Source: Planctomycetota bacterium (GTDB taxonomy: Bacteria > Planctomycetota > Phycisphaerae > UBA1845 > UTPLA1). Taken from it: DNA of 64,000 nt. The notes under the pieces are model-generated. The model did no database searches. It had not been told where the DNA came from and worked only from the letters and a program-made list of their open reading frames with translations. The DNA is taken from assembly GCA_015654675.1 (NCBI GenBank), contig JAATGM010000047.1, forward strand, positions 1 through 64,000. Direction: 5' to 3'. This document shows, one piece after another, positions 16,139 to 49,721 of the stretch; the first letter of the stretch is position 1; each line of letters begins with the position of its first letter. The position numbers and the translations under genes were made by a program.

Positions 16139-19100
16139 GTGGTTAAGCTTCGGGTTTTGGCGGTAGCGGCAGGGCTCTTCGCATTTGCGAGCGTCTCCGC
16201 GTTCGGTCAGGTCGTCATCAACGAAATTCATTACAACCCTCCCGCGACGGCCGGAGCGGATGCCGAGTTCATCGAGCTCTATAACGCCGGCGCTTCCTCC
16301 GCCGACCTTACCGGCTGGACCATTTCCAACGGCGTGGTCTATTCATTCCCGAATGGCACGACCATTCCGGCCGGCGGATATCTGGTCATCGCGAAAAACC
16401 CGGCCCTGCTTCAGGCGGCCACCGGCTACAGCGGCGCGCTCACTTGGACGTCGGGCTCGCTCGACAATGGTGGCGAGACCGTATCGATTTCAAATGCGAC
16501 GCCGATCATCGTCGACACGGTTTCCTACGACGACGTAGCGCCCTGGCCGACAGCTCCGGACGGCAACGGCAAGTCGCTCGAACTGATTTCTCCGACGCTC
16601 GACAACAGTCTCGCGGCGTCGTGGGCAGCGTCGACGGGTAACAACGGAACGCCTGGCGCCCAGAACAGCGTCTTTGTTTCGGCACCGGTGATCGTCGCGC
16701 GCACACCGATTCCGCAGACAATGGTGCCGACTCTGACGAGCATTTCTGTGACCTTTGATCGCGTCGTTACAGGAGTCGCGGCTAACAAGGTAACAGTGAA
16801 CGGATCACCGGCGACGTCATTCTCCGGCAGTGGTGTCGGCCCTTACAACTTCAGCGGTTTTACCGCTCCGACGCCCGGCTCGGTGACGATCGCCGTTTCG
16901 GGGACGGGCATTCTGGATGGCTCGAACGTGCCGTTCGGCGGCGCGGCATGGACAACCGCAGTCGGAACCAACATCGTTATCAACGAGCTTAATTATCACC
17001 CCAACGAAGTAGTCTACCCGACACAGGACACCGAGTTCGTCGAGCTATACAACGCCGGCGCGAACAACGTAAGTCTGAGCGGCTGGCAGTTCACAAACGG
17101 AATTACCTACACATTCCCCAATGGAACCACGCTGAACGCCGGGGCCTACCTGGTCGTTGCGGTGAATCCAACGGCGCTGCAAGCCGCGACTGGTTATGCG
17201 GGCGCGTTGCAGTGGACCTCGGGAAATCTGTCCAATTCCGGTGAAAAAGTCGGGATCGCCGACGCGAGTTTGAATCAGATCGACCTTGTGGACTACGCCG
17301 ACTCAGGCGTATGGCCGACCGCCGCCGACGGTGACGGCCCGTCGCTCGAGCTGCGCAATCCGGGCTATCCGAACGAATACGGCGCGGCATGGGGCGCGTC
17401 CGTTCCCAACAACGGCACGCCCGGGGCACAGAACAGCATCTATCAGGCCTCGCTCGGCCCGATCATTTTTGGGACCAAGCATCTTCCGATCATTCCGGCC
17501 GCGAATCAGGCCATCTCGATTACGGCCACGGTCGTGGATGATTCGCCCAGCCCAACCGTAACGCTCTACTACCGGCAGGATCAGGATCCGACCATCGCGT
17601 ATTCATCCGTCGTCATGTTGGACGACGGGGCCCACGGCGACGGCGCCGCGGGAGATAAGGTATACGGCGCGACAGTTCCCGGACTGGCAGACGGCCAGCG
17701 TCTGGACTTCACGATTCGCGCTGACGACGGCACAAACGTTTCGGCGGCGCCTGCGGGAAATAACACGCTGACGGCGGGGCAGTACCCGACGCAGACCTAT
17801 CTGTGTAAGTTCTCCAGTGCCGCCTTGCCGAGCGATTTTCCGTCCTATCACCTGATTACAACGCAGCGCGTTCGAAACCTTCAGACGCCGGCCATTGAGG
17901 ACGAGTTTGACGGAACGTTTGTGCGTTGCGATACGGCTGGAAACTGCGAGAACTTCTACAACATCGGCGAGCACTATCGCGGATCGAGCAGTCTCAATCA
18001 GCTTCCGCACTCTTATCGAATCGATTTTTCGGATACCAAGGCGCTCGATTCAGAGCTGGGTTACAAAGTCACCAAGCTGAATCTGCTGTCGCAATCCATC
18101 CACAAGCAGTACCTCGGAATGCAATTCTTCCGGGAGGCGTTCGGCGGACAGATTCCGACTCCGCGCAGTCAGTTCGTTCGATTCAACACGAATCCGCTCA
18201 GTCAGGGCGGCGTTCAGGACTACGTTTATCACGATGTCGAAGTCCTCGATGGATCTTTCATCGAATCGCAGAAGGGCGATTTCACACCGCTCCGTTTCCC
18301 GGATCGATGCAGCACGAGCTCGGCTGTGTGTAACGGAACGCCGGACTGTCCGGTGGGCCAGACCTGCGTTGCAACCGACGACGGCAACCTCTACCGCGGA
18401 AGAAACGACGGGGCGCGGCTCAATTACAAGGGACCGGATAAGAACTCCTACCGCACAGATGCCAATGGCACGAACGGCTACCAGAAATACACCAACGAAA
18501 CCGAGGACAACTGGGTCGACCTGATCGCGCTCAGTTTCGCACTCGATCCGTCGACAACACCGGACGCGAGCTACGAGTCATCCCTCAATCCGATCATCGA
18601 TGAAGACGAATGGGCAAAGTGGTTTGCGATCCACATGCTGCTGGTCAATGAGGAAGGTGGCATCTATCGCGACACCGGCGACGACTACTTCCTGTACTTC
18701 CAGCGCTCCACCTCGCCCGGCGGCTACAACGCCAAGCTCCTTCCGTGGGACATGGATTCGACCCTGGGCGGTGGATACGACACGTACGACCAGGAGTCGA
18801 TCTGGCGCACAACGGTTGTGTGTCCGCAACGCTTCATTCGCTCAAACATGTACGCCGGCCGTTTCGTGAAGGCCATCTGCGACATGATGGGGAACGAATT
18901 CCTGCAGGCGACGATGAATGCCAAGATCGACGCGCTGCCGACGGCAGTTGCTGACGCGGCAAGGAAGACTCAGCTGAAGAACTGGGTCACGGCACGGCGC
19001 GCATTCGTTCAGAATGAGATCAAGACTCAGCTGACCATCGCAAACCTGCCGGCCAGCCCCTACACGAATGCCAATCCGGTCATCTCTCTCAATGGTCAGC

Positions 19101-22100: not shown

Positions 22101-24250
22101 GCGACGACGGCCTGGCCTGCACGGTCGACAGTTGCAATTCGGGCAGCGGTTGCGTCCATACCGACAACTGTCCGTCCGGCAGCCTCTGTAATCACAGCAC
22201 CGGCAATTGCGATCAGCCGCCGGCCTTACCGATCGCCAACGGAGCCACCTGGAAGTACCTCAAGGGTACGGCCGAGCCGGCCCCCGGCGACCTGACCTCG
22301 TGGACGCACGTCGGCTATGACGACTCGTCGTGGTCGAGCGGTGCCAGCGGTTTCGGCTACGGCGACAACGATGACGCAACGGTATTGAGCGACATGCAAA
22401 ATACCTACGCCAGCGTTTACATTCGCAAGACCTTTACGGTCGCCAATCCCGCTGTGGTGACGCAGCTGACGCTGACCGTCGACTACGACGATGCGTACAT
22501 CGCCTATATCAACGGTGTCGAAGTCACCCGCAGCGCAAGCATGGGCGGTACGGCCGGCACACCGACGGCGTTCAACGCCTTGGCTCCGACCGGACACGAG
22601 GCATCGGGCGGCGACGCGGGATCGAGTCCGCAACCGCCCGAAGTGACCCATCCGTCGCCGAGCGTACTGGTGGCAGGCGTCAACGTGATCGCCATCCACG
22701 GACACAATCAGACGCTCGCAAGCAGCGACTTCTCGCTCATCCCATCGCTGACGGCTACCGTCGGCGGCTGCGTCAACGCGTCCGACTGCAACGACAACAA
22801 CGCCTGCACGACCGACGCCTGCAACGCCGGTTCGTGTACGCATACGCCGATCACGTGCAACGACAATAATTCGTGCACGACCGACACCTGCAACCCGGCA
22901 TCGGGCTGCGTTTACACGCCGGTGACGGATGGCACGGCGTGCGCCGACGGCAACGCCTGCAACGGCGCCGAGACTTGTCAGTCAGGCAATTGCTCGCCGG
23001 GTACGCCGCTCAATTGCGACGACGGCGACCCGTGCACCACCGACACATGCGACGGGCAGAACGGCTGCCAGCACGCTCCGATTCCGGGCTGCTGCCACAA
23101 CGCCGGCGAGTGCAACGACAACAGCGCCTGCACCACCGACAGTTGCGTGAATAACGTCTGCCAGCACGACCCGGTCAGTTGCGATGACGGCATCGCCTGT
23201 ACGACCGATTCGTGCGACTCGGTGAATGGTTGCCAGCATGCGAACACCTGCGCTCCGACGGTTGTCGCGATGGGTTCGCGCTATCTGGCGATCACGCCGC
23301 CGCCCGGCATTCCGTCGGTGGCATTGCGGATCGAGTCACCGTCCATGTCGTGCATGCCGATGTACGTGGACGCCAATGGCCATCTCTCGCCAACGCCGGT
23401 CTTCCGGTCGTCGGCGGCGTGGGGCACGGTACACGTTGGCGATCGCGCCATCGTCCCGTCGACCCCCTACGACGTGCGAGCCGACGTTCGCACGCAATCC
23501 GATCCTGTAAACCTCTCAGGCACGGCCACCGCGTCCACCTGGGCGTGGGGCGACGCCAACAACGCCGGCGGAGTCGATGTCTTTGACATCGTCTGCGTCC
23601 TCGATGGCTTCCAGTCCACGTTCGGCGGCTGCTCGATCTACGGCGACGACCTTCGCGGGAACGTTCCCGATCAGGGCGTCGATGTGTTCGACATTGTCGC
23701 CGTGCTCGATGCCTTCCAGGGCACGCCGTATCCCGATTCGACTCCGTGCGGATCGAGTCTGCTCCTCGCGCCTCCGGCCGCGACGACTCCGGCTGTGATC
23801 ACGCTGACGCCGCGAACGCGCAGTGTTGCCCCCGGCGGATCGGTCGTGGTGGATATGTTCGTGAGCGGAGCTCCGATGCTGCGGGCCTATCAGCTCGCCG
23901 CAGACGTCCGCGGCGGGTTGACTGTCGAGGCCATCAGTGTCGACGCGGCTCGCGCCGACAACGCCTTCGCCAACGCCGACGCGCGCAGCGCGTTCGACAC
24001 GTCGCGGGCTCGCATGGCCAACGCCCTGACCCAGGGTTGGAGCGATTGTTCCAATAGGCACTATCTAGGCACGATGACGCTGCGGGCCACCGGCGATGCC
24101 ACCGGCACGCTCAGCATCGGGCTCAAGTCCGCTGGGCAAACGATTCTCATCGACGCTGACCACGCGGCCGCCGCGTTCACGGTGACCGGAGCGAAGGTCT
24201 CCGTGATCCGAACCGTCGGCATCAGTGGAGCCGGTGTTCAGCCGGGCTGA
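16139..24250 (+). CDS. Giant secreted multidomain protein: lamin-tail, CotH kinase-like, beta-helix, CTDC, DNRLRE, dockerin and cohesin-like
   Basis: This is a 2703-residue exported protein. GTG 16139 is chosen because GAAAGGGG precedes it by about 6 bases and a signal peptide follows (VKLRVLAVAAGLFAFASVSA). In order: lamin-tail domain (LTD) about 26-178; Ig-like domain; second LTD about 278-431; CotH kinase-like domain about 567-940 with its LLPWDMDSTLG motif near 868-878; right-handed beta-helix about 1185-1568; Cys-rich CTDC repeats (1582-1704, 1904-2026, 2211-2371); DNRLRE domain about 1709-1901; jelly-roll-like 'WKYLKGT' module about 2031-2209; dockerin-like pair (GVDVFDIV twice) about 2473-2541; cohesin-like end about 2551-2701. 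CotH proteins are kinase-fold proteins that phosphorylate secreted proteins; activity here is untested. It overlaps the next gene by one base and heads the cluster. Confidence 0.85.
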   Translation: MVKLRVLAVAAGLFAFASVSAFGQVVINEIHYNPPATAGADAEFIELYNAGASSADLTGWTISNGVVYSFPNGTTIPAGGYLVIAKNPALLQAATGYSGALTWTSGSLDNGGETVSISNATPIIVDTVSYDDVAPWPTAPDGNGKSLELISPTLDNSLAASWAASTGNNGTPGAQNSVFVSAPVIVARTPIPQTMVPTLTSISVTFDRVVTGVAANKVTVNGSPATSFSGSGVGPYNFSGFTAPTPGSVTIAVSGTGILDGSNVPFGGAAWTTAVGTNIVINELNYHPNEVVYPTQDTEFVELYNAGANNVSLSGWQFTNGITYTFPNGTTLNAGAYLVVAVNPTALQAATGYAGALQWTSGNLSNSGEKVGIADASLNQIDLVDYADSGVWPTAADGDGPSLELRNPGYPNEYGAAWGASVPNNGTPGAQNSIYQASLGPIIFGTKHLPIIPAANQAISITATVVDDSPSPTVTLYYRQDQDPTIAYSSVVMLDDGAHGDGAAGDKVYGATVPGLADGQRLDFTIRADDGTNVSAAPAGNNTLTAGQYPTQTYLCKFSSAALPSDFPSYHLITTQRVRNLQTPAIEDEFDGTFVRCDTAGNCENFYNIGEHYRGSSSLNQLPHSYRIDFSDTKALDSELGYKVTKLNLLSQSIHKQYLGMQFFREAFGGQIPTPRSQFVRFNTNPLSQGGVQDYVYHDVEVLDGSFIESQKGDFTPLRFPDRCSTSSAVCNGTPDCPVGQTCVATDDGNLYRGRNDGARLNYKGPDKNSYRTDANGTNGYQKYTNETEDNWVDLIALSFALDPSTTPDASYESSLNPIIDEDEWAKWFAIHMLLVNEEGGIYRDTGDDYFLYFQRSTSPGGYNAKLLPWDMDSTLGGGYDTYDQESIWRTTVVCPQRFIRSNMYAGRFVKAICDMMGNEFLQATMNAKIDALPTAVADAARKTQLKNWVTARRAFVQNEIKTQLTIANLPASPYTNANPVISLNGQLNQCGTRYVKVNGQDADGYSVYLASWNKQITLTPGLNHITVQCLDYTNTEISRVDATVLYDPPDSTPGIRLTMPQRMVNTKTLTLKAELLDSSGNIDWRVWNTLGTVSATRVSNGQAVPLTVTVFERHTAGAGAGGPPTTDSIRLYNGVGSVSLTLNNGASVPAGDLIITVNANSKSASRLVTVVDAAAPGTFQDLSGALSGGNLIWEPADGVIHLTGHVNVPPGQTLTIMPGTLIMVDSGPDGDGNRIDSNTSTINAQGTRTNPIYFFPTNGPPAMVLPQTGSEGSGNGHNNPACWGGFDLIGAGSMTWSYVFMTGTGNGVVSGHPRPTVIRLANNYAFTASDSVLCDSPGKIIYGNGNGVYTIQRCLFARCGIGGEWIGSGYTLTVDDTWMTRIGRAPINASNRLDGDILHIDQPSNARVRRCILTDGGDDIIDHSSAATPIVENSILYDANDKTVSIGGGGSITMTNCLVFEVPGGIRCAGVPAYLTHVTLGPNTNVNGQDTVNSVMQQCIFWPLGSPTCASGQMNYCDTANAANLGCGTGNISANPNYVDSNFSPPGDVFVNFGLQAGSPALTAGPSGNQIGWLGFPNPSGCVNNSDCNDSNPCTTDTCSNGTCSNTPIANCCQGAGDCNDGDPCTDDACSNNVCTHTPANCSDGNACTTDSCSPGVGCQHVAVNCDDNNACTIDSCDSVNGCQHTPVGCPQGQSCNPANGQCQTGPVTVTFQNGFNSYTGTVDTYIDTALGSQATVSPVVVDSSPEEQVLLRFDNIFGSGAGQIPAGSTISSATLTIWSGPNTNDESANAVNFHRLLHTWSDTSVWAAYGASPWNASGGIQNDGVDAVIAQAGTTTITTVATSANIDVTSSLQAWVSSPTSNFGWAILPTGTDGLRLESAESTTSSNSRRPKLSVTYVPPTSTCTTAADCNDNDACTTDACNAGSCSHTPITCNDNNACTTDSCSPASGCVFSPVANGTACSDGNACNGAESCQGGNCTPGTPLNCDDGLACTVDSCNSGSGCVHTDNCPSGSLCNHSTGNCDQPPALPIANGATWKYLKGTAEPAPGDLTSWTHVGYDDSSWSSGASGFGYGDNDDATVLSDMQNTYASVYIRKTFTVANPAVVTQLTLTVDYDDAYIAYINGVEVTRSASMGGTAGTPTAFNALAPTGHEASGGDAGSSPQPPEVTHPSPSVLVAGVNVIAIHGHNQTLASSDFSLIPSLTATVGGCVNASDCNDNNACTTDACNAGSCTHTPITCNDNNSCTTDTCNPASGCVYTPVTDGTACADGNACNGAETCQSGNCSPGTPLNCDDGDPCTTDTCDGQNGCQHAPIPGCCHNAGECNDNSACTTDSCVNNVCQHDPVSCDDGIACTTDSCDSVNGCQHANTCAPTVVAMGSRYLAITPPPGIPSVALRIESPSMSCMPMYVDANGHLSPTPVFRSSAAWGTVHVGDRAIVPSTPYDVRADVRTQSDPVNLSGTATASTWAWGDANNAGGVDVFDIVCVLDGFQSTFGGCSIYGDDLRGNVPDQGVDVFDIVAVLDAFQGTPYPDSTPCGSSLLLAPPAATTPAVITLTPRTRSVAPGGSVVVDMFVSGAPMLRAYQLAADVRGGLTVEAISVDAARADNAFANADARSAFDTSRARMANALTQGWSDCSNRHYLGTMTLRATGDATGTLSIGLKSAGQTILIDADHAAAAFTVTGAKVSVIRTVGISGAGVQPG

Positions 24251-25245
24251 TGCGGCTTGCGAAAGAGGGTTTAGAGTTGCAAAGGGGAAGAAGCACAATC
24301 TGGTGGGTGGTATCGGCCGCGTCGGCGTTGAGCTGGTGCGCGCTGGCCTCCGCCCATCCCGGCATTCATCACGACATCGAGCGTGTCTCGGCCTCCCTTC
24401 AGAAAGAGCCGGGCAACGCCGAATTGTTGATGGAGCGCGGCTACTACTACCGGCTCGCCGGCCAGCTCAAGGAGTCACTGGCCGACCTCGACCAGGCCGA
24501 GAAACTCGCCCCGAGCAATCTCGATATTGTGGGCCAGCGCGGCATGACATTGGCCGCGATCGGCCGCGGCGAGGATGCCGAGGCCGAGTTGACCCGTTTC
24601 ATCAATTCCGGACGCGGCAGTGCTGCCGTCCTTGCCGATCGTGCCCGCATTCGCGCCAAGTCCGGGCGCGCGGATGCCGCCATCGAAGACTACTCGGCGG
24701 CCCTGAAACTCGGACCCGACGTGGATCTCTATATCGAGCGCTGCTCGGTTCAGGAGATCGAAGGCCGATTGAGCCACGCCGCTGCCGGACTTCGCGAGGG
24801 AATCAATGAGCTTGGTGGGGCGATCGTTCTGCGCGAGCGATTGGTCGAAATCGAAGTTCGCCGGAAGAGGTACGACGCCGCACTGAAGGTCATCGATGAC
24901 CAGCTTGCGGTCGCTCCGGTGAAATCAGAATGGTATCTGCGGCGAGGCAACGTGCTGGCAGCGGCCGGTCGCGATGCCGATGCCCGCGCCGATTGGAAGC
25001 GCGCGTTGGACGAGGCAAATCGCGTACTCGAGACGCGGCCGACGGCGACGCATCTGATTTCGCGGGCCCGCGCCAACCTCGCGTTGGGCTACTCACAACA
25101 GGCATTGTCGGATGCCCGGCTGGCGGTGCAGCGCTCACCACGCTTCGCCGAAGCGCGGGCATTATTGGAACAGATTGAATCGAAGACGTCGGGGGCAACG
25201 TTTTCCCATACGGGGACGGAAGGATTGAAGAATGACAGCCGGTAA
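24250..25245 (+). CDS. Exported TPR-repeat protein
   Basis: The 331-residue protein has an N-terminal membrane or signal segment (TIWWVVSAASALSWCALASA) after a basic start. About seven TPR-like units follow, such as AELLMERGYYYRLAGQLKES and LADLDQAEKLAPSN, and SEWYLRRGNVLAAAGRDADA near the end. TPR proteins act as protein-protein docking surfaces. Its start codon overlaps the stop of the preceding giant gene (TGATG), and its end overlaps the next giant gene by 14 bases, so the three genes must be made together. It may assist export or assembly of its giant neighbours, which is inferred from context only. A tail of about 20 residues after the last repeat is polar and disordered. Confidence 0.85.
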   Translation: MRLAKEGLELQRGRSTIWWVVSAASALSWCALASAHPGIHHDIERVSASLQKEPGNAELLMERGYYYRLAGQLKESLADLDQAEKLAPSNLDIVGQRGMTLAAIGRGEDAEAELTRFINSGRGSAAVLADRARIRAKSGRADAAIEDYSAALKLGPDVDLYIERCSVQEIEGRLSHAAAGLREGINELGGAIVLRERLVEIEVRRKRYDAALKVIDDQLAVAPVKSEWYLRRGNVLAAAGRDADARADWKRALDEANRVLETRPTATHLISRARANLALGYSQQALSDARLAVQRSPRFAEARALLEQIESKTSGATFSHTGTEGLKNDSR

Positions 25246-38821: not shown

Positions 38822-38885
38822 GCACACATTCAGAGATGTTTTCCGGCCCGCGCCGATGGGCGCGCAGCCATTGGAGGTGGATGTG

Positions 38886-39614: not shown

Positions 39615-39659
39615 GCAAGCGGCCGCTGTCGCGGTGTATAGGAAAAAGGACATGGCGGA

Positions 39660-39683: not shown

Positions 39684-39707
39684 ACGTCGTTTGGAAGAGG
39701 AAAGCCC

Positions 39708-42700
39708 ATGAAGCGCGCACACGTCCATCTGGCCTGCCTTCTCGCGGGATGTCTCGCGACCGCCGCGGCACAGGGGCAGACCGCCCTCCAGTTCAACGGC
39801 ACAAATCAGTATGTCACCATGGGGACTGCCTCCGGTCTCGGCACCGCCACCTTCACACTTGAGTGCTGGTTCAAACGCGCGAGTGCGTCGGGCAACGCCG
39901 GCTTGGGGACGGTGACGGGTGGAAACGGATTCAACGGAAGCATTATCCCGCTGGTATCGAAGGGCCGCGGCGAAGCCGACGCGACCAACGTCGATTGCAA
40001 CTACATCCTGGGAATACAGACCACAAGCAACCTGCTGGTTGCCGATTTCGAAGAAGCCGGCACCGGCCCGAATCCGGGCCTCAATCACCCGATTTGCGGC
40101 TCCACTGCCATAGCGGACACAAACTGGCACCACGCCGCCGCCACCTACAGCACCGCAGCGGGATGGAGTCTCTATCTCGATGGAGTCGCTCAGACCGTCG
40201 CGACCGCTTGCACGAATTGCCAGACAACCGCTCCGAACAACTGCCTCGTCAGCCCCGGTGTTGCTCCTAGAAGCGACAGCATTCAGCACTTCGGTATCGC
40301 CAGTGCTTTGACCTCGACCGGCGTGGCCGATGGGTTCTTCAACGGCTCGATCGACGAGGTTCGCGTCTGGAACGTCGTTCGTACCCTGGCCGAAATCCAA
40401 GGAGCTATGAACCAGCAGCTGACGTCCGGTACCGGACTCATCGGCCGTTGGGGATTCAACGATGGGTCCGGATCTTCCGCCACAAATTCAATCGCTGGAT
40501 CGCCGGCCGGCACGCTGACCAACACCCCGACCTGGGTCACAGGCGCGCCCGCGCTCAACAATCAGCCGCCCAATCAACCGACGCTCGTGACTCCCGCAAA
40601 TGGGGCGTCGGGCGTGAGTACGTCGCCGACTCTGACCGTCAACGTAACCGACCCCGAAAGCAACCCGATGACGGTGACGTTCTTTGGTCGGGCGAACACC
40701 ATTCCGCCGCCCGGGCCGGACTTCAGCATCATCGCTCTACCCGATACGCAGTTTTATGCCTGCGGCGTGCCCTGCAGCTCGGACAACGGATTGCTCAACG
40801 CCCAGCTTCAGTGGATCGTGGACAACAAGGCCAGCCGCAACATTGCCTTCGTGACCCAACTTGGCGATTGCGTGGAGCACGGGAACGACGGCAACGCCAA
40901 TGGCGTCAACGCCGAGTGGGATGTGGCCAATGCCGCCTATCAGCTGATCGAGAACCCCGCGACGACCCTGCTCACCTACGGCATCCCCTTTGGCATCGCA
41001 GTCGGCAACCACGACCAGACCCCGATCAACTCGCCGCGCAACGGCTCCGACGAAGGCGCCACGACCACGCGATACAACAACACCTTCGGCGTCAGTCGAT
41101 TTCTCGGCCGATCCTACTACGGCGGGCGATACGATTTCGGCGCACCGGCCTCCTACCCCAACAACAACGACAACCACTATGAGCTGTTCAGCGCCAGCGG
41201 GCTGGATTTCATCATCATCCATCTTGAGTACGACGACACGGCCAACACCACGCGCACGGCGGTGCTGAATTGGGCGAACGGATTGCTTCAGACCCACAGC
41301 AATCGCCGCGCCATCATCACCTCGCACTACATCCTCAATCCGGACGGAACATTTGGAAATCAGGGACAGGCCATTTACGACGCCCTGAAGGGAAACGCCA
41401 ATCTCTTCCTGATGCTGTGCGGACACCTCGACCAGGCCAATCGCCGCTCCGATACCTTCGGCGGCAACACCGTGAACACGCTCCTGTCCGACTACCAGTC
41501 TCGCCCGACTGGCGGTCGCGGCTGGATGCGCCGCCTGCTCTTCTCGCCGGCCAACAACACCATTCACGTTGAGACGTTTTCGCCGTGGGCAAACTATCCG
41601 ACAACTCCCAAACAGGAACAGCTGATCAATAGCCACGCCGACAACGCCGGCACCGCTCTCAACGATTTCACGCTGACCTATTCGATGAGCAACAGCGCAC
41701 CGGCGTTCGCTCAGATCGGCAGCACGCAGACCGGCGTGGCCAGCGGAAGCAATACAAGCGTGTCCTGGCCCGGCCTCACCGCCAATTTAATCTACGAATG
41801 GAAGGTGACCGTCTCGGACGGCACTTCGACCACCAACGGCCCAACTTGGAACTTCCAGACCCAGTGCACCGGCAACGCCGCCTGCGACGACGGCAACCCC
41901 TGCACGACCGACGTTTGCGATAACGGCGCTTGCACCCATACGAATAACACCAATAGTTGCAATGACGGGAACAACTGTACGACCGGCGATGTGTGCAGCG
42001 GAGGCGTCTGCGCGGGAACACCAACAAACTGCCTGCCCGGAACGAGCTGCAACCCGGCCAACGGTCTGTGCGAGTCGCAGCCGGTAACCGTCACATTCCA
42101 GCAGGGAACTGCCGGGTATTCGGGTGAAGTCGATACCTATATCGACGCCGGTGCGGCGACCGCGAATAACGGCGCGGCAGCAGCGCTGGTTGTCGATCTC
42201 GCGCCCAGTGTGAAACAGGCCCTGCTCCGATTTGGAAATCTCTTCGCGTCCGAGGGCGGCCCGATTCCAGCCGGTGCGACGATCATGTCTGCCACGCTGA
42301 CGGTAAACGTCGGCGCCGGGGCAGGTACTGTCCAGCAGGTCGGTTTCCATCGAATGAAAGCGGCATGGTCCGCCAGCGACAACTGGAACACGTTCGGCAC
42401 TACGCCGTGGAATTCCACCGCCGGCATCCAACTCGACAACGTCGAGGCGAATACCTCGCCGGATGCGTCCACCACCATTCCCGACGGCGTGAACGTCATC
42501 ACCGTGACATCGAGCGTGCAGGCATGGTACGCCAGTCCGTCAAGCAACTTTGGCTGGGTTCTGAACGAGACGGTTGATGATTCCGTGACGTTTGATTCCG
42601 CCGAGGGGGCGACCGTTGCCAACCGTCCCAAACTGACCGTGACCTATTTGCCGCCGCCGCCATGCCAGGTCAATGGCGATTGCAACGACGGTAACGCCTG

Positions 42701-45700
42701 CACCACCGACACCTGCAACAGCGGCACATGCGTCTATACGCCAATCACTTGTAACGACAACAGCGCGTGCACGACCGACACCTGCAACCCGGCCACCGGG
42801 TGCGTCTATACCGCGATCAGTTGCGACGACGGCGATGGCTGCACCACCGACGGCTGTGTGGCCGCGACGGGCTGCACGCACACGCCGGTCGATTGCAACG
42901 ACAACGATCCTTGTACGGCCGATTCGTGTCAGCCCGCCAACACCGCCGCGGTCTCGATGAACGGATCGAGCCAATACGTGAGTATCGGAACCGGCGCGGC
43001 GGTTGCAAACTTCGGTACAGGCAGCTTCACCATCGAGGGCTGGTTCAAGGCAACTGCCACGCCGACGGCCAATGTGAGCTTGTTCCGCATGGGACGCTCG
43101 GGCAATTTCCCGCAGGCCGTCGTTCAGATTCTTGCCAACACCAATACCATCGCGGCCTCGGTCGAAACGAATACTTCGCCAAGCCAGGCCGACACGGCGA
43201 CGGGAATCACATTCACGTTGAATACATGGACGCACTTCGCGGCCGTGGCCGATCGCACGGCGGGCGCGCAGCGGCTGCGTCTCTACGTCAATGGATCGCT
43301 GGTCAGCGACGTCGATGCCTCGGTTTGGAGTACGAATGCGATCTCAAGCACCGACCCCACCATTTTCGGAGCTGCCCGGGCGGCGGACGGCACCCTGAAC
43401 GCTTTCTACAGCGGAGCGCTCGACGAAATCCGGCTTTGGAACACGATCCGCACCCAGACCCAAATTCAAACCAACATGAATTCGCAGCTCTCGTCGGCGT
43501 CGGGTCTCATCGCGCACTGGGCCTTCAACGAAGGCACCGGAACCAGCGCGGCCGACTCAGTCGGTGGCAATTCCGGTACCCTGACTGGCGGCGCAACGTG
43601 GATCACTGGCGCGGCCAACCTCGTGAACATGGGCTCCGGCGGCTGCGTCCATACGCCCATCGCAAATTGCTGTTCGAGCGCTGCTCAATGCAACGACAAC
43701 AACCCTTGCACCACCGACACATGCAATAGCGGCACCTGCGGCCATACCCCGGTCAGTTGCCCATCCGGCCAAACCTGCAACGCGACCAACGGCCAATGCG
43801 AACTCATCCCGCTCGAGCCGCCGCTGCCCATCGTGGCCGGCAACACCTGGAAGTACTTCAAGGGCACCGTCGCGCCGCCTTCGACGTGGCGGGCCGTCGG
43901 CTTCGATGACTCGACCTGGCTCTCCGGTCCCAGCGGTTTCGGCTATGCCGACAACGACGACGCGACCGTGCTGAGCGATATGATCAACACATACTCGGCT
44001 GTCTTCATCCGCCGCAAATTCAACATCACAAATCCGGCGACTGTCACCCAACTCACGCTGTCAGTCGATTACGACGACGGCTACGTCGCCTACATCAACG
44101 GAGTCGAAGTCGCACGTAGTGCGAGCATGGGTGGAACCGTCGGAACGCCACCTGCGTTTAACGCGCTGGCGACCGGCAGTCACGAGGCCTCCGGAGGAGA
44201 CTCGAGTCCTCAACCCGTCGAAGTCACTCATCCGTCACCCAGTGTCCTGGTGGCCGGCGCAAACGTGATCGCCATCCAATGCCACAACAACACCATCGGA
44301 AGCTCGGACTTTTCGCTGATTCCCGCTCTGAGCGCCACCGCGGTCGAGTGCGTGGTCGCGGCCGACTGCAACGACAACAACGCCTGCACGACCGACGCCT
44401 GCAACAGCGGAACCTGCACGCACACCGCCATCAGTTGCGACGACGGCAATGGCTGCACCACCGACTCATGCAACCCCGCCACCGGCTGCGCCCATACCCC
44501 GCTGAGCTGCGACGACGGCGACTCCTGCACCGTGGACTCCTGCTCGGGCGGCTCCTGCCAGCACGTCGTCAACTGTGACGACGGCAACCCCTGCACGCTC
44601 GATAGCTGTGCTCCGGGCAACACCGCCGCCCTCGTCTTCGACGGAACGAACGACTACGTCACCATGGGCGCCGCGGCCGCACTGAATGCCTCGCCGGCCT
44701 TCACCCTCGAATGCTGGTTCAAGCGAACCGGCACCGGCGTCCCGACCAACACCGGCACGAACGGTATCGCAAGTCTGGTTCCGCTGATCAGCAAGGGCGG
44801 TCCGCAGGATGAGACCGCCGCCAACAACATGAACTACGTCCTCGGAATCGACACCTCCACGAACACGCTGGCGGTGGACTTCGAGGAAGCGACCGGCGCG
44901 AATACCGGCCTCAATCATCCGGCCACATCACCGGTTGGCGCCGCAAACGCCAACGTCATCGCCAACAATGTCTGGTATCACGCCGCCGCGACCTACGACG
45001 GAACCAACTGGCGCATCTACCTCAACGGAAATCTGATCCACACGCTGCTCGTCAGCGCCGTGCCCGAGCCCAACAGCGGCCAGCATTTTGCCCTCGGCAC
45101 CATGCTCAAGACCGACGGCACCGCCGCCGCCAATCCCAGCGCGGCCTACTTTGCCGGCGTGCTCGATGAAGTCCGCGTTTGGAACGTCGCCCGCGCGGCT
45201 GGCGAAGTCTCGTCAAACATGAACGGCCAAATCACCTCGGCCACGGGCCTCATCGGCCGCTGGGGATTGAACGACGCATCGGGATCAACCGCGACGGCAT
45301 CGGTAGGTCCGAATGGCACGCTGACCAACGGTCCGACCTGGGCGACCACGTCCTTGCCGAATGTCGGCGGTGGCTGCACGCACGTCGTCCAGGATTCGGA
45401 CGGCGACGGCGTGTGCAATGCAAACGACGGCTGCCCCAACGATCCCAACAAGATCGCGCCAGGTCAGTGTGGTTGCGGAATCGCCGACACGGATTCTGAC
45501 GGCGACGGAACTGCAAACTGCAACGACGGCTGCCCGAATGACGCGAACAAGCTCGCTCCGGGTATTTGCGGTTGCGGTGTGGCCGATACCGACAGCGACG
45601 GCGACGGTACCCCGAACTGCCATGACGGCTGCCCGAACGATCCGAACAAGACCGCCCCCGGAATCTGCGGTTGCGGCGTGGCTGACACCGATAGCGACGG

Positions 45701-48700
45701 CGACGGAACCGCCAACTGCATCGACGGCTGCCCGAACGATCCCAACAAGATCGCGCCGGGTCAGTGCGGTTGCGGAACGGCCGACACCGACACGGATGGG
45801 GACGGCACTCCGAACTGTCACGACGGTTGTCCGACCGATGCCAACAAGATCGCCCCCGGCGTCTGCGGCTGCGGCGTTTCCGATGTCGACGCCGATGGCG
45901 ACGGTACTCCCAACTGCATCGACGGCTGCCCGACCGATCCGAACAAGATCAACCCGGGCATCTGCGGCTGCGGCACGCCCGACACCGACTCCGATCACGA
46001 CGGCATCCCAGATTGCAACGACCATTGCCCCGGAACGACCGACGTCGATACCGACGGCGACGGCGTCTACGACTGCACTGATGGCTGCCCGAACGATCCG
46101 AATAAGTCGTCGCCGGGCCAGTGCGGCTGCGGCTTACCCGACACAGATTCAGACAACGACGGCACCGCCAACTGCCACGACAATTGCCCGAACGATCCGA
46201 GCAAGATCAATCCCGGCCAGTGCGGCTGCGGCAATCCGGAAACGGATACCGACGGCGACGGTACCGCCAACTGCAACGACGGCTGCCCCAACGATCCGCT
46301 CAAGACGGTCGCAGGCCAGTGCGGATGCGGCCATCCCGATACCGATTCCGACAACGACGGCACGGCCAACTGCAACGACGGCTGTCCGAATGATCCCGAC
46401 AAGATTGCTCCCGGCCTCTGCGGTTGCGGCTTCTCAGACGCCGACACCGATGGCGACGGTACGCCAAATTGTCACGACGGCTGTCCGGCCGATCCGCTGA
46501 AGACGGCGCCGGGCCAGTGCGGTTGCGGAATTGCAGACACCGATACGGACAACGACGGAACGGCGAACTGCAACGACAGTTGCCCGACCGATCCGAACAA
46601 GATCGCCCCGGGCGCCTGCGGTTGCGGAGTCGCGGACACCGACAGCGACAATGACGGCGTCCCCGATTGTCACGACGTTTGCCCCGGAGCGCCCGACATC
46701 GATACCGATGGCGACGGCACGTTGGACTGCCATGACGGCTGTCCCGCCGATCCGCTCAAGACGGTTCCCGGCCAGTGCGGCTGCGGCAATCTGGATACGG
46801 ACACCGACGGCGACGGTACCGCCGACTGTCACGACGGCTGCCCGCTCGATTCGACCAAGACCGCCCCCGGCGTCTGCGGTTGCGGCATGTCCGATGCCGA
46901 TTCCGACAACGACGGCACGCCCAACTGCATCGACGGCTGCCCGACTGATCCGAACAAGATCAACCCGGGCGTCTGCGGCTGCGGAACGCCCGACACCGAC
47001 TCCGATCACGACGGCATCCCGGACTGCAACGATCATTGCCCCGGTACGGCCGACATCGACTCTGACGGCGACGGCGTCCTCGATTGCACCGATGGTTGCC
47101 CCAACGATCCGGCCAAGACGACGCCGGGCCAGTGCGGCTGCGGTACTCCCGACACCGATTCAGACGGCGACGGCACGGCCAACTGCCACGACGCCTGCCC
47201 GAATGACCCGAACAAGGTGGTTGCCGGCCAGTGCGGTTGCGGAAATCCGGAAACCGATTCCGATCACGATGGCACAGCCGACTGCATCGACAGTTGCCCC
47301 AACGATCCGGCCAAGACAACGCCCGGCCAGTGCGGCTGCGGCAATCCCGAGACAGATTCAGACGGCGACGGCACGGCCAACTGCATCGACGGCTGCCCCA
47401 ACGACCCGGCCAAGATCAGTCCGGGTGCTTGCGGCTGCGGTGTTGCCGACACCGACACCGACACCGACGGCACGCCCGACTGTCACGACCTGTGCCCGGC
47501 CGATCCGCTGAAGACGGCCCCGGGCCAGTGCGGCTGCGGTAATGCCGAAACGGATACCGACAGCGACGGCACGGCCGACTGCATCGACGGTTGCCCGACC
47601 GATCCGAACAAGATCGCGCCCGGCCTGTGCGGCTGCAACGTGGCCGAGACCGACAACGACAACGATGGCACGCCGAATTGCATCGATGGCTGCCCGAACG
47701 ATCCCAACAAGATCGCCCCGGGTGCCTGCGGCTGCGGCGTCTCCGATGCCGACTCCGACCACGACGGTACACCAAATTGTCACGACGGCTGCCCGTCCGA
47801 CCCGAACAAGACCAGCCCCGGCATCTGCGGCTGCGGCGTGGCCGACACTGATTCCGACAACGATGGCATCCCCGATTGCAACGACCATTGCCCCGGATCG
47901 GCCGACGTCGATTCCGATGGCGACGGCGTCCTCGATTGCAGCGATGGCTGCCCGAACGACCCGAACAAGTCCGATCCAGGCCAGTGCGGCTGCGGAGTTG
48001 CCGACATCGATACGGACAAGGATGGCACCGCAAACTGCAACGACGGCTGCCCGACCGATCCCGACAAGACCGCCGCCGGCCAGTGCGGCTGCGGCATTGC
48101 CGACACTGACGACGATCACGACGGCACGGCCAACTGCAACGACGGCTGCCCGAATGATCCGAACAAAATTGCGGCCGGCGTCTGCGGCTGCGGAGTCGCC
48201 GACACTGATAGCGATGCCGATGGCGTGGCCGATTGCCACGACATCTGCTCAGACACGCCGTCCGGCCAGACGCCGAACGCCCAGGGTTGCTCATGCAGCC
48301 AGGTGAATTGCGACGACGGCAACGCCTGCACCGCCGACACGTGCACGAATGGCGTCTGCTCCAACACGCCGCTCACCTGCGACGATGGCGATGCCTGCAC
48401 CACCGATTCCTGCGATACGCAGACCGGCTGTCATCATGTGGCCGTGAACTGCGACGACGGCAATCCTTGCACGGTCGACTCCTGCAATTCGCAGACCGGC
48501 TGCCATCACCAGAACGCCTCCGACGGAACCAGTTGCTCAAACGGCCAGTTCTGCGACGGAGCCGAAACCTGTATGAGCGGCGCCTGCCAGCCCGGCACGC
48601 CGCCATGCGACTCGGCACACTGCAACGAGGCCAGCGACACCTGCGCCCAGTGCATCAGCGACGCCGAGTGCGCCGACGATGGCAATCCCTGCACCGACGA

Positions 48701-49721
48701 AGTCTGCTCCGCCGGGCAGTGCACCCATCCGCCAAAGACCAACGGCACGTCCTGTTCGGACGGCCTCTATTGCAACGGCGCTGAAACCTGCCAGGGCGGC
48801 GTCTGTGCTGATGGCCTCGATCCATGCGTCGATCTGGCGCACTGCAATGAGGCGACTGACTCTTGCAATCAGTGCGTCAGCGCGGCCGAGTGCGACGACA
48901 ACAATCCGTGTACGGCGGACACCTGTTCAGCCGGCGCATGCGTCCACACGCCGCTCAATTGCATCAACGTCACGCTCCATGTCGATGGCCTCGGCCATGC
49001 CGTGACGCGCAGCGTGACATTCGTGCTGACGCCCTGCGGCGGTACGCCCGAGACGCGCGTCCTGCCGGTCTCATTTGCACCGAGCGGACAGGGTTATGGC
49101 ATCGGTAGCGTGACGCTCTCCAACGTCAACGCAAACACGGCCTGGCTCAGCGCCCGCGAGGGTCACACGCTGCGTCGCCGCCTGCCGGTCAGCTTCCCGC
49201 CGACCCTCTCGGCCTCGGTCGACTTCACCGGGAGTAACAAGCTTCTGGCGGGTGACCTGCAAACGCCTGCTTCAAGTCAGGACAACCTGGTCGACGTGAT
49301 CGACTTTGCCATCCTGGCTGCTCGCTGGAACACGGTGGTCGGCGATTGCGTCGGCGGACTGCCCGCTGAGTGTTCGCGCGGGGCCGACGTCAATGGCGAC
49401 GGACAACAGGGCACGATCGACTTCACCGCGTTGCAGATCAACTTCTTCGCCACGGGCGACTCGGACGACGCCTGCCCGCCGGGCGTGCAAGCCAAGCGGC
49501 CCATCGGCGTCGATGGCCCGCTGCAGTCGGCCCGGATGATGCGTGTGCGTGTCTCAGAGATTGCGAATCGCGTGCCAAACGCGGCGCTCGCAGATCAGAA
49601 CGCGGACGGTGTCATCGATTCGGCCGACATCCGGCTCTTCGCGATGCGCAATCGTTTGAAGCTGCTGCCGGCGTTCGATCGCCTGCTGCAACAGACGGCG
49701 CCACTCGCGGCTGAGCGCTAA
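39708..49721 (+). CDS. Giant secreted protein (3337 aa): LamG, calcineurin-like phosphoesterase, DNRLRE, CTDC, 31 TSP3-like repeats, dockerin-like end
   Basis: AGAGGA precedes the ATG. The leader contains LLAGC at residues 11-15, which reads as a lipobox, but cleavage after TAAA is also possible, so it is a lipoprotein or secreted. Order: LamG-like about 27-280; calcineurin-like phosphoesterase about 338-632 (LPDTQFY, GDCVEHG, GNHD near 433, SHYIL, CGHLDQ near 571); CTDC; DNRLRE about 793-981; CTDC; LamG about 1080-1308; CTDC; jelly-roll-like 'WKYFKGT' module about 1373-1545; CTDC; LamG about 1640-1886; TSP3-like calcium repeats 1896-2861; CTDC 2866-3086; shared C-terminal module 3086-3337 with dockerin-like motifs. 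The TSP3 array should form a calcium-stabilised rod. It is the last gene of the cluster; a strong hairpin follows. Confidence 0.87.
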   Translation: MKRAHVHLACLLAGCLATAAAQGQTALQFNGTNQYVTMGTASGLGTATFTLECWFKRASASGNAGLGTVTGGNGFNGSIIPLVSKGRGEADATNVDCNYILGIQTTSNLLVADFEEAGTGPNPGLNHPICGSTAIADTNWHHAAATYSTAAGWSLYLDGVAQTVATACTNCQTTAPNNCLVSPGVAPRSDSIQHFGIASALTSTGVADGFFNGSIDEVRVWNVVRTLAEIQGAMNQQLTSGTGLIGRWGFNDGSGSSATNSIAGSPAGTLTNTPTWVTGAPALNNQPPNQPTLVTPANGASGVSTSPTLTVNVTDPESNPMTVTFFGRANTIPPPGPDFSIIALPDTQFYACGVPCSSDNGLLNAQLQWIVDNKASRNIAFVTQLGDCVEHGNDGNANGVNAEWDVANAAYQLIENPATTLLTYGIPFGIAVGNHDQTPINSPRNGSDEGATTTRYNNTFGVSRFLGRSYYGGRYDFGAPASYPNNNDNHYELFSASGLDFIIIHLEYDDTANTTRTAVLNWANGLLQTHSNRRAIITSHYILNPDGTFGNQGQAIYDALKGNANLFLMLCGHLDQANRRSDTFGGNTVNTLLSDYQSRPTGGRGWMRRLLFSPANNTIHVETFSPWANYPTTPKQEQLINSHADNAGTALNDFTLTYSMSNSAPAFAQIGSTQTGVASGSNTSVSWPGLTANLIYEWKVTVSDGTSTTNGPTWNFQTQCTGNAACDDGNPCTTDVCDNGACTHTNNTNSCNDGNNCTTGDVCSGGVCAGTPTNCLPGTSCNPANGLCESQPVTVTFQQGTAGYSGEVDTYIDAGAATANNGAAAALVVDLAPSVKQALLRFGNLFASEGGPIPAGATIMSATLTVNVGAGAGTVQQVGFHRMKAAWSASDNWNTFGTTPWNSTAGIQLDNVEANTSPDASTTIPDGVNVITVTSSVQAWYASPSSNFGWVLNETVDDSVTFDSAEGATVANRPKLTVTYLPPPPCQVNGDCNDGNACTTDTCNSGTCVYTPITCNDNSACTTDTCNPATGCVYTAISCDDGDGCTTDGCVAATGCTHTPVDCNDNDPCTADSCQPANTAAVSMNGSSQYVSIGTGAAVANFGTGSFTIEGWFKATATPTANVSLFRMGRSGNFPQAVVQILANTNTIAASVETNTSPSQADTATGITFTLNTWTHFAAVADRTAGAQRLRLYVNGSLVSDVDASVWSTNAISSTDPTIFGAARAADGTLNAFYSGALDEIRLWNTIRTQTQIQTNMNSQLSSASGLIAHWAFNEGTGTSAADSVGGNSGTLTGGATWITGAANLVNMGSGGCVHTPIANCCSSAAQCNDNNPCTTDTCNSGTCGHTPVSCPSGQTCNATNGQCELIPLEPPLPIVAGNTWKYFKGTVAPPSTWRAVGFDDSTWLSGPSGFGYADNDDATVLSDMINTYSAVFIRRKFNITNPATVTQLTLSVDYDDGYVAYINGVEVARSASMGGTVGTPPAFNALATGSHEASGGDSSPQPVEVTHPSPSVLVAGANVIAIQCHNNTIGSSDFSLIPALSATAVECVVAADCNDNNACTTDACNSGTCTHTAISCDDGNGCTTDSCNPATGCAHTPLSCDDGDSCTVDSCSGGSCQHVVNCDDGNPCTLDSCAPGNTAALVFDGTNDYVTMGAAAALNASPAFTLECWFKRTGTGVPTNTGTNGIASLVPLISKGGPQDETAANNMNYVLGIDTSTNTLAVDFEEATGANTGLNHPATSPVGAANANVIANNVWYHAAATYDGTNWRIYLNGNLIHTLLVSAVPEPNSGQHFALGTMLKTDGTAAANPSAAYFAGVLDEVRVWNVARAAGEVSSNMNGQITSATGLIGRWGLNDASGSTATASVGPNGTLTNGPTWATTSLPNVGGGCTHVVQDSDGDGVCNANDGCPNDPNKIAPGQCGCGIADTDSDGDGTANCNDGCPNDANKLAPGICGCGVADTDSDGDGTPNCHDGCPNDPNKTAPGICGCGVADTDSDGDGTANCIDGCPNDPNKIAPGQCGCGTADTDTDGDGTPNCHDGCPTDANKIAPGVCGCGVSDVDADGDGTPNCIDGCPTDPNKINPGICGCGTPDTDSDHDGIPDCNDHCPGTTDVDTDGDGVYDCTDGCPNDPNKSSPGQCGCGLPDTDSDNDGTANCHDNCPNDPSKINPGQCGCGNPETDTDGDGTANCNDGCPNDPLKTVAGQCGCGHPDTDSDNDGTANCNDGCPNDPDKIAPGLCGCGFSDADTDGDGTPNCHDGCPADPLKTAPGQCGCGIADTDTDNDGTANCNDSCPTDPNKIAPGACGCGVADTDSDNDGVPDCHDVCPGAPDIDTDGDGTLDCHDGCPADPLKTVPGQCGCGNLDTDTDGDGTADCHDGCPLDSTKTAPGVCGCGMSDADSDNDGTPNCIDGCPTDPNKINPGVCGCGTPDTDSDHDGIPDCNDHCPGTADIDSDGDGVLDCTDGCPNDPAKTTPGQCGCGTPDTDSDGDGTANCHDACPNDPNKVVAGQCGCGNPETDSDHDGTADCIDSCPNDPAKTTPGQCGCGNPETDSDGDGTANCIDGCPNDPAKISPGACGCGVADTDTDTDGTPDCHDLCPADPLKTAPGQCGCGNAETDTDSDGTADCIDGCPTDPNKIAPGLCGCNVAETDNDNDGTPNCIDGCPNDPNKIAPGACGCGVSDADSDHDGTPNCHDGCPSDPNKTSPGICGCGVADTDSDNDGIPDCNDHCPGSADVDSDGDGVLDCSDGCPNDPNKSDPGQCGCGVADIDTDKDGTANCNDGCPTDPDKTAAGQCGCGIADTDDDHDGTANCNDGCPNDPNKIAAGVCGCGVADTDSDADGVADCHDICSDTPSGQTPNAQGCSCSQVNCDDGNACTADTCTNGVCSNTPLTCDDGDACTTDSCDTQTGCHHVAVNCDDGNPCTVDSCNSQTGCHHQNASDGTSCSNGQFCDGAETCMSGACQPGTPPCDSAHCNEASDTCAQCISDAECADDGNPCTDEVCSAGQCTHPPKTNGTSCSDGLYCNGAETCQGGVCADGLDPCVDLAHCNEATDSCNQCVSAAECDDNNPCTADTCSAGACVHTPLNCINVTLHVDGLGHAVTRSVTFVLTPCGGTPETRVLPVSFAPSGQGYGIGSVTLSNVNANTAWLSAREGHTLRRRLPVSFPPTLSASVDFTGSNKLLAGDLQTPASSQDNLVDVIDFAILAARWNTVVGDCVGGLPAECSRGADVNGDGQQGTIDFTALQINFFATGDSDDACPPGVQAKRPIGVDGPLQSARMMRVRVSEIANRVPNAALADQNADGVIDSADIRLFAMRNRLKLLPAFDRLLQQTAPLAAER
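45393..48298 (+). repeat. 31 tandem TSP3-like calcium-binding repeats (99-bp units with four 60-bp units)
   Basis: Units of 33 residues follow DxDxDGxxxCxDGCPxDPxK and end with xPGxCGCG. Four short units of 20 residues (DSDxDGxPDCxDxCPG) lie at 45987-46046, 46641-46700, 46998-47057 and 47850-47909. The pattern is 6 long, short, 6 long, short, 3 long, short, 8 long, short, 3 long, then one diverged final unit at 48207. Every boundary falls at the predicted base, so there is no frameshift. Short units with their neighbours are near-copies of each other, which points to block duplication. Confidence 0.9.

What the first reader, a model, noticed from the sequence alone, without database searches (positions are those of the whole stretch)
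16139..49721. A 33.6-kb same-strand cluster of giant secreted mosaic proteins with cohesin-like and dockerin-like modules
Seven genes (16139-49721) are on one strand with gaps of 93 bases or less or overlaps. All have export signals. Six of them mix cohesin-like and dockerin-like domains, and four are 1800-3300 residues long. Two carry phosphoesterases, one a CotH kinase-like domain, and one is a pure repeat stalk. Cohesin-dockerin pairing is known from cellulosomes, but here there are no glycoside hydrolases. A calcium-dependent extracellular matrix or scaffold with phosphate-handling enzymes is a new reading that the neighbourhood supports.
Basis: partly seen in the sequence, partly recalled or inferred. 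Interest (0 to 1): 0.82.

Follow-up and report, generated by a model that had tools for sequence, protein, structure and literature searches.

The report
Conserved planctomycete scaffold-protein gene cluster
A planctomycete carries a block of genes for very large, probably exported proteins built from the snap-together parts of cellulosomes (cohesins and dockerins), and related planctomycetes keep the same kind of block, so it probably codes for the frame of a cell-surface protein assembly, a kind proposed before under the name planctosome and not tested here.

Summary
The observation largely holds: seven same-strand genes (16139-49721), gaps at most 93 bases. Corrections: five proteins (A, C, D, E, F) carry cohesin-like plus dockerin-like ends (A's dockerin-like part by eye only); G has the dockerin end only; B is a TPR protein with neither; D is no pure stalk but cohesin, Ig/PKD repeats, X-dockerin.

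The main cohesin type is real: its profile matches cellulosomal cohesins in the PDB. C, D and G end in a ~240-residue module: X part, dockerin, third calcium loop.

Among 150 genomes searched (this one included), X-dockerin is in 79, gene-F-type cohesins in 62, both in 59. Of 94 listed non-seed F genes, 35 lie within 15 kb of an X-dockerin (about 2 expected). F relatives end in a dockerin or a PEP-CTERM-like tail; one with PEP-CTERM is in this genome, which has an exosortase: a possible surface-anchored cohesin. Dockerin matches (116) far outnumber cohesins genome-wide.

'No glycoside hydrolases' holds for the cluster only (a dockerin-bearing GH44 lies elsewhere); phosphatases look like variable cargo. 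The general idea is in print as the 'planctosome' (2019). Best reading: scaffold/adaptor locus of a planctosome-like assembly. All binding is inferred.

The parts
16139..24250 (+). Gene A: LTD x2, CotH kinase-like, Cys repeats (Dicty_CTDC), DNRLRE; C-terminal dockerin-like stretch (about 23537-23731, by eye) and A9-type cohesin-like domain (23762-24211)
   Evidence: dockerin-like part by eye only (no Pfam match)
24250..25245 (+). Gene B: TPR protein with signal-like N-terminus; no cohesin or dockerin
   Evidence: also present between A-like and C-like genes in G005
25232..32155 (+). Gene C: DNRLRE x3, purple acid phosphatase, Big_12, LTD, Cys repeats, A9-type cohesin-like domain, X-dockerin
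25916..27181 (+). Purple acid phosphatase part of gene C
   Evidence: PDB purple acid phosphatases E 6e-21 (query 25913-27179 nearly the same stretch); motifs
30872..31321 (+). A9-type cohesin-like domain of gene C
   Evidence: model VIA Z 10.2 to cohesins over residues 1-152; weak by sequence
31340..32149 (+). X-dockerin module of gene C
32201..37633 (+). Gene D: N-terminal cohesin (32291-32737), Ig/PKD repeats, X-dockerin (36830-37630)
36830..37630 (+). X-dockerin module of gene D; Dockerin_1 over Pfam cut-off
37646..38821 (+). Gene E: A9-type cohesin-like domain (37730-38176), main-type cohesin (38201-38614), C-terminal dockerin-like part
   Evidence: Pfam Cohesin 29.9 bits, cut-off 24.1
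38856..39614 (+). Gene F: F-type cohesin (38952-39434) and dockerin-like tail
   Evidence: Pfam Cohesin 15.5 bits, below cut-off
39708..49721 (+). Gene G: LamG x3, phosphoesterase-like region, DNRLRE, Cys repeats, thrombospondin type 3 repeats, X-dockerin; no cohesin found
40665..41687 (+). Phosphoesterase-like region of gene G
   Evidence: Metallophos 20.1 bits, cut-off 21.5; no PDB match
48960..49709 (+). X-dockerin module of gene G
12729..13871 (-). Neighbouring protein with a phytase-like domain and a C-terminal dockerin; possible client, not part of the same-strand cluster
   Evidence: PF13449 33.4 bits, PF00404 36.7 bits

Best explanation
The cluster encodes scaffold and adaptor proteins of a planctosome-like, non-cellulosomal cohesin-dockerin assembly outside the cell. 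SHOWN by sequence or fold: D and E carry cohesins of the type that matches PDB cohesins; F carries a variant linked to them by profile-profile comparison; A, C and E carry a further cohesin-like type supported mainly by a fold match; C, D and G end in an X-dockerin; X-dockerin genes and F-type genes tend to occur together and side by side across related Planctomycetota. INFERRED: (1) the proteins are exported and held together by cohesin-dockerin contacts; (2) X-dockerins bind E- or F-type cohesins, as the CipA X-dockerin binds surface type II cohesins (recalled); (3) F relatives with a PEP-CTERM tail, one of them on another contig of this genome, are processed by the exosortase system and hold the assembly to the envelope; (4) D-type proteins, with a cohesin at one end, an X-dockerin at the other and a stalk of variable length between, are spacers or links; (5) modules such as CotH, purple acid phosphatase, LamG and LTD are exchangeable cargo, and many dockerin proteins encoded elsewhere (peptidases, an esterase, a GH44) are possible clients.
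For: Main-type cohesin profile against the PDB: 34 matches at E<=1, best 1.8e-7, most named as cellulosomal scaffoldins or cohesins. F type to main type: hhalign probability 95.4, E 1.8e-8. X-dockerin profile: best PDB match a cellulosomal dockerin, E 8.3e-6, followed by EF-hand proteins and more dockerins. Model of C's last 428 residues: Foldseek ranks 1, 3 and 4 are C. thermocellum scaffoldin chains 3kcp/4fl4, E 3.3e-8 to 1.2e-6; VIA ranks cohesins first, Z 10.2. X-dockerin in 79 of 150 genomes, F type in 62, both 59, neither 68. 35 of 94 listed non-seed F-type places within 15 kb of a listed X-dockerin, 2.1 expected. 16 of 18 neighbourhoods hold a cohesin protein beside X-dockerin genes (chosen by eye). 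Gene order kept in G005. 22 of 35 X-dockerin proteins have a cohesin-like domain on the same chain, N-terminal to it in 22 of 22. F-type protein on C19 ends in PEP-CTERM, 22.4 bits over a cut-off of 20.7; one exosortase match, 190 bits. 116 Dockerin_1 matches against 2 Cohesin matches in this genome.
Against: No binding test was possible. A9-type domains are weak as cohesins by sequence (hhalign probability 15.9; no PDB cohesin) and half of their 6 places in this genome lie outside the window. The F profile found no PDB cohesin and the F model failed (pLDDT 43.8). The model of C is poor in the dockerin part and the match to the scaffoldin chains has low TM-scores (0.20-0.28). G's X-dockerin shows one calcium loop under the pattern used. 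Outside this genome the PEP-CTERM tails scanned are under Pfam's cut-off or unmatched (5 of 5). Interchange of dockerin and PEP-CTERM tails fits a plain-anchor reading equally well. Co-occurrence counts are not corrected for ancestry. No strong promoter or terminator evidence for one transcript.
Confidence: 0.55

Rival explanations
1. Dockerin and X-dockerin ends are envelope-attachment or sorting tags that bind a non-cohesin component, and the cohesin-like domains are ordinary adhesive beta-sandwiches; the proteins do not bind one another. The cluster is then a set of surface adhesins or matrix proteins.
For: Dockerin and PEP-CTERM tails replace each other on F-type proteins, as two kinds of anchor would. 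NCBIfam names a domain 'GC-type dockerin domain-anchored protein', which D's tail matches weakly (18.5 bits, cut-off 29). 116 dockerin against 2 Pfam cohesin matches in the genome. A 2017 review notes many cohesins and dockerins in methanotrophic archaea and suggests a role in cell contact or adhesion (PMC5244752, passages read).
Against: Cohesin and X-dockerin genes occur together and side by side far more than expected, and main-type cohesins match true dockerin-binding cohesins. None of the 9 dockerin-bearing proteins in a 10-protein NCBIfam scan reported the GC-type model at E 0.1.
Confidence: 0.25
2. A phosphate-scavenging surface complex: CotH kinase, purple acid phosphatase, a second phosphoesterase and the neighbouring phytase-like dockerin protein act together on extracellular phosphate esters.
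For: CotH in A, phosphatase in C, phosphoesterase-like region in G, phytase-like neighbour; G005 and G015 loci also have such modules.
Against: Phosphatase or phosphoesterase-like modules in 3 of 18 neighbourhoods only, and CotH found in 3, while cohesin and X-dockerin recur; dockerin proteins elsewhere are mostly not phosphate enzymes.
Confidence: 0.08
3. No functional unit: a run of paralogous secreted mosaic proteins grown by local duplication and module shuffling.
For: C, D and G share C-terminal modules (C 52% and G 48% identical to D); repeats and modules are shared among genes.
Against: Distinct E and F types are kept beside X-dockerin genes in other genera, and the order A-G is kept in G005 at 32-55% identity of the best local matches.
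Confidence: 0.1

Closest known systems
Planctosome (hypothetical; Andrei et al. 2019, PMC6461901, passages read)
   Same: Planctomycete; cohesin and dockerin modules without cellulosomal use; LTD and thrombospondin-3 in giant proteins; adaptor with dockerin, HYR and cohesin, which has counterparts on C19 of this genome and in G031, G073, G090, G093; dockerin-bearing peptidases.
   Different: There an LTD protein is the anchor and the enzymes are M12B and M14 peptidases; the passages seen mention no PEP-CTERM, X module or gene cluster. Here the peptidases seen are M10 and S8, with a conserved cluster, X-dockerins with a third loop, and F-type cohesins with dockerin or PEP-CTERM tails.
Clostridial cellulosome: CipA cohesin-X-dockerin end and surface type II cohesins (recalled; structures 3kcp and 4fl4)
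   Same: Cohesin-like domain, X part and dockerin in the same order at the end of gene C, C30 and others; Foldseek and VIA matches.
   Different: Few cohesins per chain (one or two in the window); no glycoside hydrolase in the cluster; third calcium loop after a spacer; different surface-attachment signal.
Cohesin/dockerin complex of Ca. Stygibacter, Cloacimonadota (PMC8542988, passages read)
   Same: Dockerin peptidases and hydrolases with a surface-attached cohesin protein, inferred from genomes.
   Different: There one 3,755-aa scaffold with tandem cohesins and CBM2/CBM3 and a C-terminal attachment domain; here several proteins with one or two cohesins each.
Cohesins and dockerins of methanotrophic archaea (PMC5244752, passages read)
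   Same: Many cohesin and dockerin domains, HYR domains and an exosortase-type sorting system in one organism.
   Different: Archaea; no cluster or cohesin-PEP-CTERM protein described in the passages seen.

Membership tests
Cohesin domain (PF00963) | Score over Pfam's cut-off (24.1 bits) | tested here: met
   Gene E 29.9 bits. Not reached by F (15.5 bits); no Pfam cohesin match reported for A, C, D or G at E 1; D matched through the main-type profile.
Cohesin domain (PF00963) | Cohesin fold for the A9 type (A, C, E first domain) | tested here: inconclusive
   Model of C: VIA Z 10.2, rmsd 2.8, 115 residues to 4uyq_A, unrelated rows at 8.2; sequence comparison weak.
Dockerin type I (PF00404) | Score over Pfam's cut-off (22.9 bits) | tested here: met
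   D 27.9 bits; C 22.3, E 16.2 and G 12.4 fall short; no match for A and F at E 1.
Dockerin type I (PF00404) | Two calcium-binding loops | tested here: met
   Permissive pattern: C and D two each, G one; 31 of 35 aligned modules two or more.
Cellulosome | Scaffoldin with several cohesins per chain | tested here: not met
   Window: at most two cohesin-like domains per chain (gene E). A three-cohesin protein exists in relative G093.
Cellulosome | Dockerin-bearing plant-wall hydrolases as the main clients | tested here: inconclusive
   1 GH44 and 1 esterase with CBM20 among 19 scanned dockerin proteins, out of 116 dockerin matches.
Planctosome (hypothetical) | Adaptor with dockerin, HYR and cohesin | tested here: met
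   C19 protein of this genome: HYR_4C and Dockerin_1 by Pfam, cohesin by profile; not in the window itself.
Planctosome (hypothetical) | Dockerin-bearing M12B and M14 peptidases | tested here: inconclusive
   None among 19 scanned dockerin proteins; two M10 and two S8 found; the other dockerin proteins were not scanned.
Planctosome (hypothetical) | LTD anchor with P-domains, thrombospondin-3 and cohesin on one chain | tested here: not met
   Window: LTD in A and C, thrombospondin-3 in G, on different chains; the rest of the genome was not searched for it.
PEP-CTERM/exosortase sorting | C-terminal PEP-CTERM motif on a cohesin protein, exosortase present | tested here: met
   C19 F-type protein 22.4 bits, cut-off 20.7; exosortase 190 bits. 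Not met by gene F of the window, which has a dockerin-like tail.
Cohesin-dockerin pair | Calcium-dependent binding | not testable with these tools
   Needs a binding experiment.

The most novel reading that the evidence does not exclude
An order of Planctomycetota builds a cell-surface scaffold in which exosortase-processed (PEP-CTERM) cohesin proteins are the receptors for X-dockerins of giant mosaic proteins, with cohesin-stalk-X-dockerin spacers of variable length. It would be a cohesin-dockerin system fixed to a Gram-negative-type envelope through the PEP-CTERM/exosortase route, and a docking port for part of about a hundred dockerin-bearing secreted proteins.
Probability: 0.28. Interest if true: 0.75.

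Novelty: new variant of a known kind. Interest (0 to 1): 0.55.

Why it matters
Planctomycetes encode many giant secreted proteins of unknown use, and the planctosome was proposed from genomes alone. The conserved cluster names candidate scaffold, adaptor and receptor genes, so the idea becomes testable with a few purified domains, and it bears on why dockerins are so many and cohesins so few in such a genome. The dockerin/PEP-CTERM tail exchange gives a concrete hypothesis for how a complex could be held on the cell.

Tried and rejected
AF2 of gene F (4 sequences) gave pLDDT 43.8 and was not used. AF2 of C's end is weak in the dockerin part (block means 27-67 from residue 251 on), so nothing is said about docking within the chain. 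The F-type profile found no PDB cohesin; the A9-type profile found no PDB relative. Promoter/terminator scans: 0 and 1 promoter-like sites (3.3 and 2.6 in shuffles), 8 and 9 terminator-like sites (14.5 and 13.9 in shuffles); they neither prove nor exclude one transcript. The idea that all cohesin-like domains of the genome sit at X-dockerin loci was dropped: it holds for the main and F profiles (7 of 7 places; these profiles were built from sequences at such loci) and for the 2 Pfam matches, but not for the A9 type (3 of 6 outside the window). The named-genome scan gave one relative. Name lookup failed, so the class is not confirmed; a contig of G015 matches QEVG01000019.1 ('Planctomycetota bacterium isolate PLA2') in length and position. 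A search for papers with cohesin, dockerin and PEP-CTERM together found none; (any two of PEP-CTERM, dockerin, exosortase) listed 12 of 40, none of the 12 with both dockerin and PEP-CTERM; one of them was read in passages. Two A2 'cohesin' matches in G061 giants may be confused with LTD, which Pfam finds in one of them; no conclusion rests on them alone.

Selection and dropped rows: the 18 neighbourhoods were chosen by eye, preferring genomes with several hits, so the count of cohesin genes beside X-dockerins is biased. G002 matched X-dockerin but not in the rescan, so its proteins are not among the 35. The clustering test leaves out the 18 F-type seeds; it uses the 150 X-dockerin places listed and,'s list, 112 rows typed down to about E 1e-25 (the weaker listed rows were left out; both lists are cut by the tool); genome sizes were approximate. 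Of 20 dockerin loci fetched (20 of the 25 highest-ranking places), 19 were scanned; L100 was dropped because it is nearly identical to L098. In one search, 5 of 35 tails were flagged PEP-CTERM by the script and 3 more by eye.

Full report
OBSERVATION. The window is part of a 139-kb contig (C58) of a 4.93-Mb assembly in 62 contigs, about 96% complete. Seven + strand ORFs from 16139 to 49721 (A-G) are separated by at most 93 bases or overlap. Reading the translations, each has an N-terminal signal-peptide-like stretch; no predictor was run. Domain content from Pfam and NCBIfam: A LTD, CotH, DNRLRE, Cys repeats; B TPR; C DNRLRE, purple acid phosphatase, Big_12, LTD, dockerin; D Ig/PKD repeats, dockerin; E cohesin and weak dockerin; F weak cohesin; G LamG, thrombospondin-3, DNRLRE, phosphoesterase-like, weak dockerin.

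THE X-DOCKERIN MODULE. C, D and G end in a shared module of about 240 residues (C 52% and G 48% identical to D): a beta-rich X part, two dockerin loops and, after a spacer of variable length, a third calcium loop. In this genome it is found at six places: C, D, G, one protein on C30 and two on C19. Of 35 modules aligned, a permissive loop pattern gives two loops in 24, three in 7, one in 3 and none in 1. In C and D the second and third loops fit and the first is degenerate; in G only the third fits. Against the PDB the profile's best match is a cellulosomal dockerin (E 8.3e-6), followed by a mixture of EF-hand proteins such as calmodulin and further dockerins (60 of 221 matches shown).

THE COHESINS. 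Three sequence types occur. The main type (D, E second domain, C30, C19) matches PDB cohesins. The F type is a distinct, well conserved variant, linked to the main type by profile comparison but not by direct PDB match. The A9 type (A, C, E first domain) is linked only by fold: a model of C's last 428 residues (mean pLDDT 58.3) gives C. thermocellum scaffoldin chains at Foldseek ranks 1, 3 and 4 with low TM-scores and VIA Z about 10 to several cohesins over residues 1-153, some 2 units above the first unrelated rows. That 3kcp and 4fl4 hold a cohesin-X-dockerin piece of CipA is recalled.

CONSERVATION. The X-dockerin profile matches 79 of 150 genomes searched (this one included) and the F-type profile 62 of 150; 59 hold both, 20 X-dockerin only, 3 F type only, 68 neither (Fisher p 1.6e-20, not corrected for ancestry). 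In a phylum-wide draw of 294 genomes the F type was found in 5, this genome included. Leaving out the 18 seed sequences, 35 of 94 listed F-type places lie within 15 kb of a listed X-dockerin, against 2.1 expected for random placement. I read 18 neighbourhoods, chosen by eye: 16 hold a cohesin protein without X-dockerin at the locus, counting the C19 protein found later; C30 and one G015 locus do not. G005 keeps the order of A to G with one extra gene between F and G; identities of the best local matches are A 32% (the fetched stretch cuts this gene), B 41%, C 50%, D 37%, E 51%, F 53%, G 55%.

ARCHITECTURE. 22 of 35 X-dockerin proteins also carry a cohesin-like domain, N-terminal to it in 22 of 22. 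Two arrangements recur: cohesin directly beside X-dockerin (C, C30, two G001 and two G015 proteins), and cohesin at the N-terminus with Ig/PKD repeats in between (D and relatives in G001, G005, G031, G073, G090; 3 to 18 repeat matches counted with two overlapping models; none in the 467-aa C19 protein). The second has complementary ends and a variable length, which suits a spacer or link.

ANCHORING. Of 35 F-type ORFs in 31 loci, by my reading, 22 end dockerin-like, 8 PEP-CTERM-like, 1 IPTL-like, 2 otherwise and 2 are cut by the stretch. In this genome gene F has the dockerin-like tail and the C19 relative a PEP-CTERM tail over Pfam's cut-off (22.4 against 20.7 bits); of the five other relatives scanned for such tails, three match PEP-CTERM (13.5-18.8 bits) and one IPTL-CTERM below the cut-offs, and one has no such match. 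The genome has one exosortase match. G002, G008 and G061 carry a tandem pair, one of each tail.

CLIENTS. PF00404 gives 116 matches at E<=0.01 over the genome (150 of 233 candidates scored; 86 over the cut-off on their own by my count of the rows), against 2 for PF00963. Nineteen high-ranking dockerin proteins include two M10 and two S8 peptidases, a GH44, an esterase with CBM20, and Kelch, sortilin-like, beta-helix and lectin proteins; six have no other match. So the absence of glycoside hydrolases is true of the cluster only. Purple acid phosphatase or phosphoesterase-like modules are in 3 of 18 neighbourhoods, CotH in at least 3: cargo varies, scaffold parts recur.

PRIOR WORK. Andrei et al. 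2019 (PMC6461901; passages read) proposed the planctosome in freshwater Nemodlikiaceae. Their adaptor (dockerin, HYR, cohesin) has counterparts here: a C19 protein of this genome, and proteins in G031, G073, G090 and G093. The word occurs in 4 papers of the library (listing seen). Similar assemblies were inferred for Cloacimonadota (PMC8542988, passages), and cohesins and dockerins of unknown function are noted in methanotrophic archaea (PMC5244752, passages). I found no paper in that library naming cohesin, dockerin and PEP-CTERM together.

VERDICT. A real, conserved cluster; most likely the scaffold and adaptor locus of a planctosome-like assembly. The general idea is in print as a hypothesis; what this work adds is the conserved cluster, the X-dockerin with a third loop, the E and F gene types and the exchange between dockerin and PEP-CTERM tails. 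All binding claims are inference.

Noticed in passing
window 12729-13871 (-): Probably exported protein with a phytase-like domain and a C-terminal dockerin over Pfam's cut-off, next to the cluster on the other strand.
   Followed up: no
window 8285-10870 and 61343-64000: An ECF sigma factor gene followed by a Ser/Thr kinase gene; near the right end a sigma-like ORF and another long ORF (read, not scanned).
   Followed up: no
window 50302-57108: BlaR1/M56-type peptidase with TPR, a large TPR protein and an ExbB/TolQ-type channel protein follow the cluster on the same strand.
   Followed up: no
genome G089: 17 X-dockerin matches, the most of any genome listed, in open frames of up to 7590 codons.
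   Followed up: no
L055:15462-17651 (G093): One protein with three cohesin matches at an X-dockerin locus, closer to a classical scaffoldin.
   Followed up: partly
L118 (G000:C45:150001-168000): Two long proteins in a row, the second ending like gene A (dockerin-like stretch, then A9-type cohesin-like domain): paralogues of gene A outside the window.
   Followed up: partly
L098 and L100 (ends of contigs C25 and C36): Nearly identical dockerin proteins cut at two contig ends: a repeated gene or an assembly duplicate.
   Followed up: no
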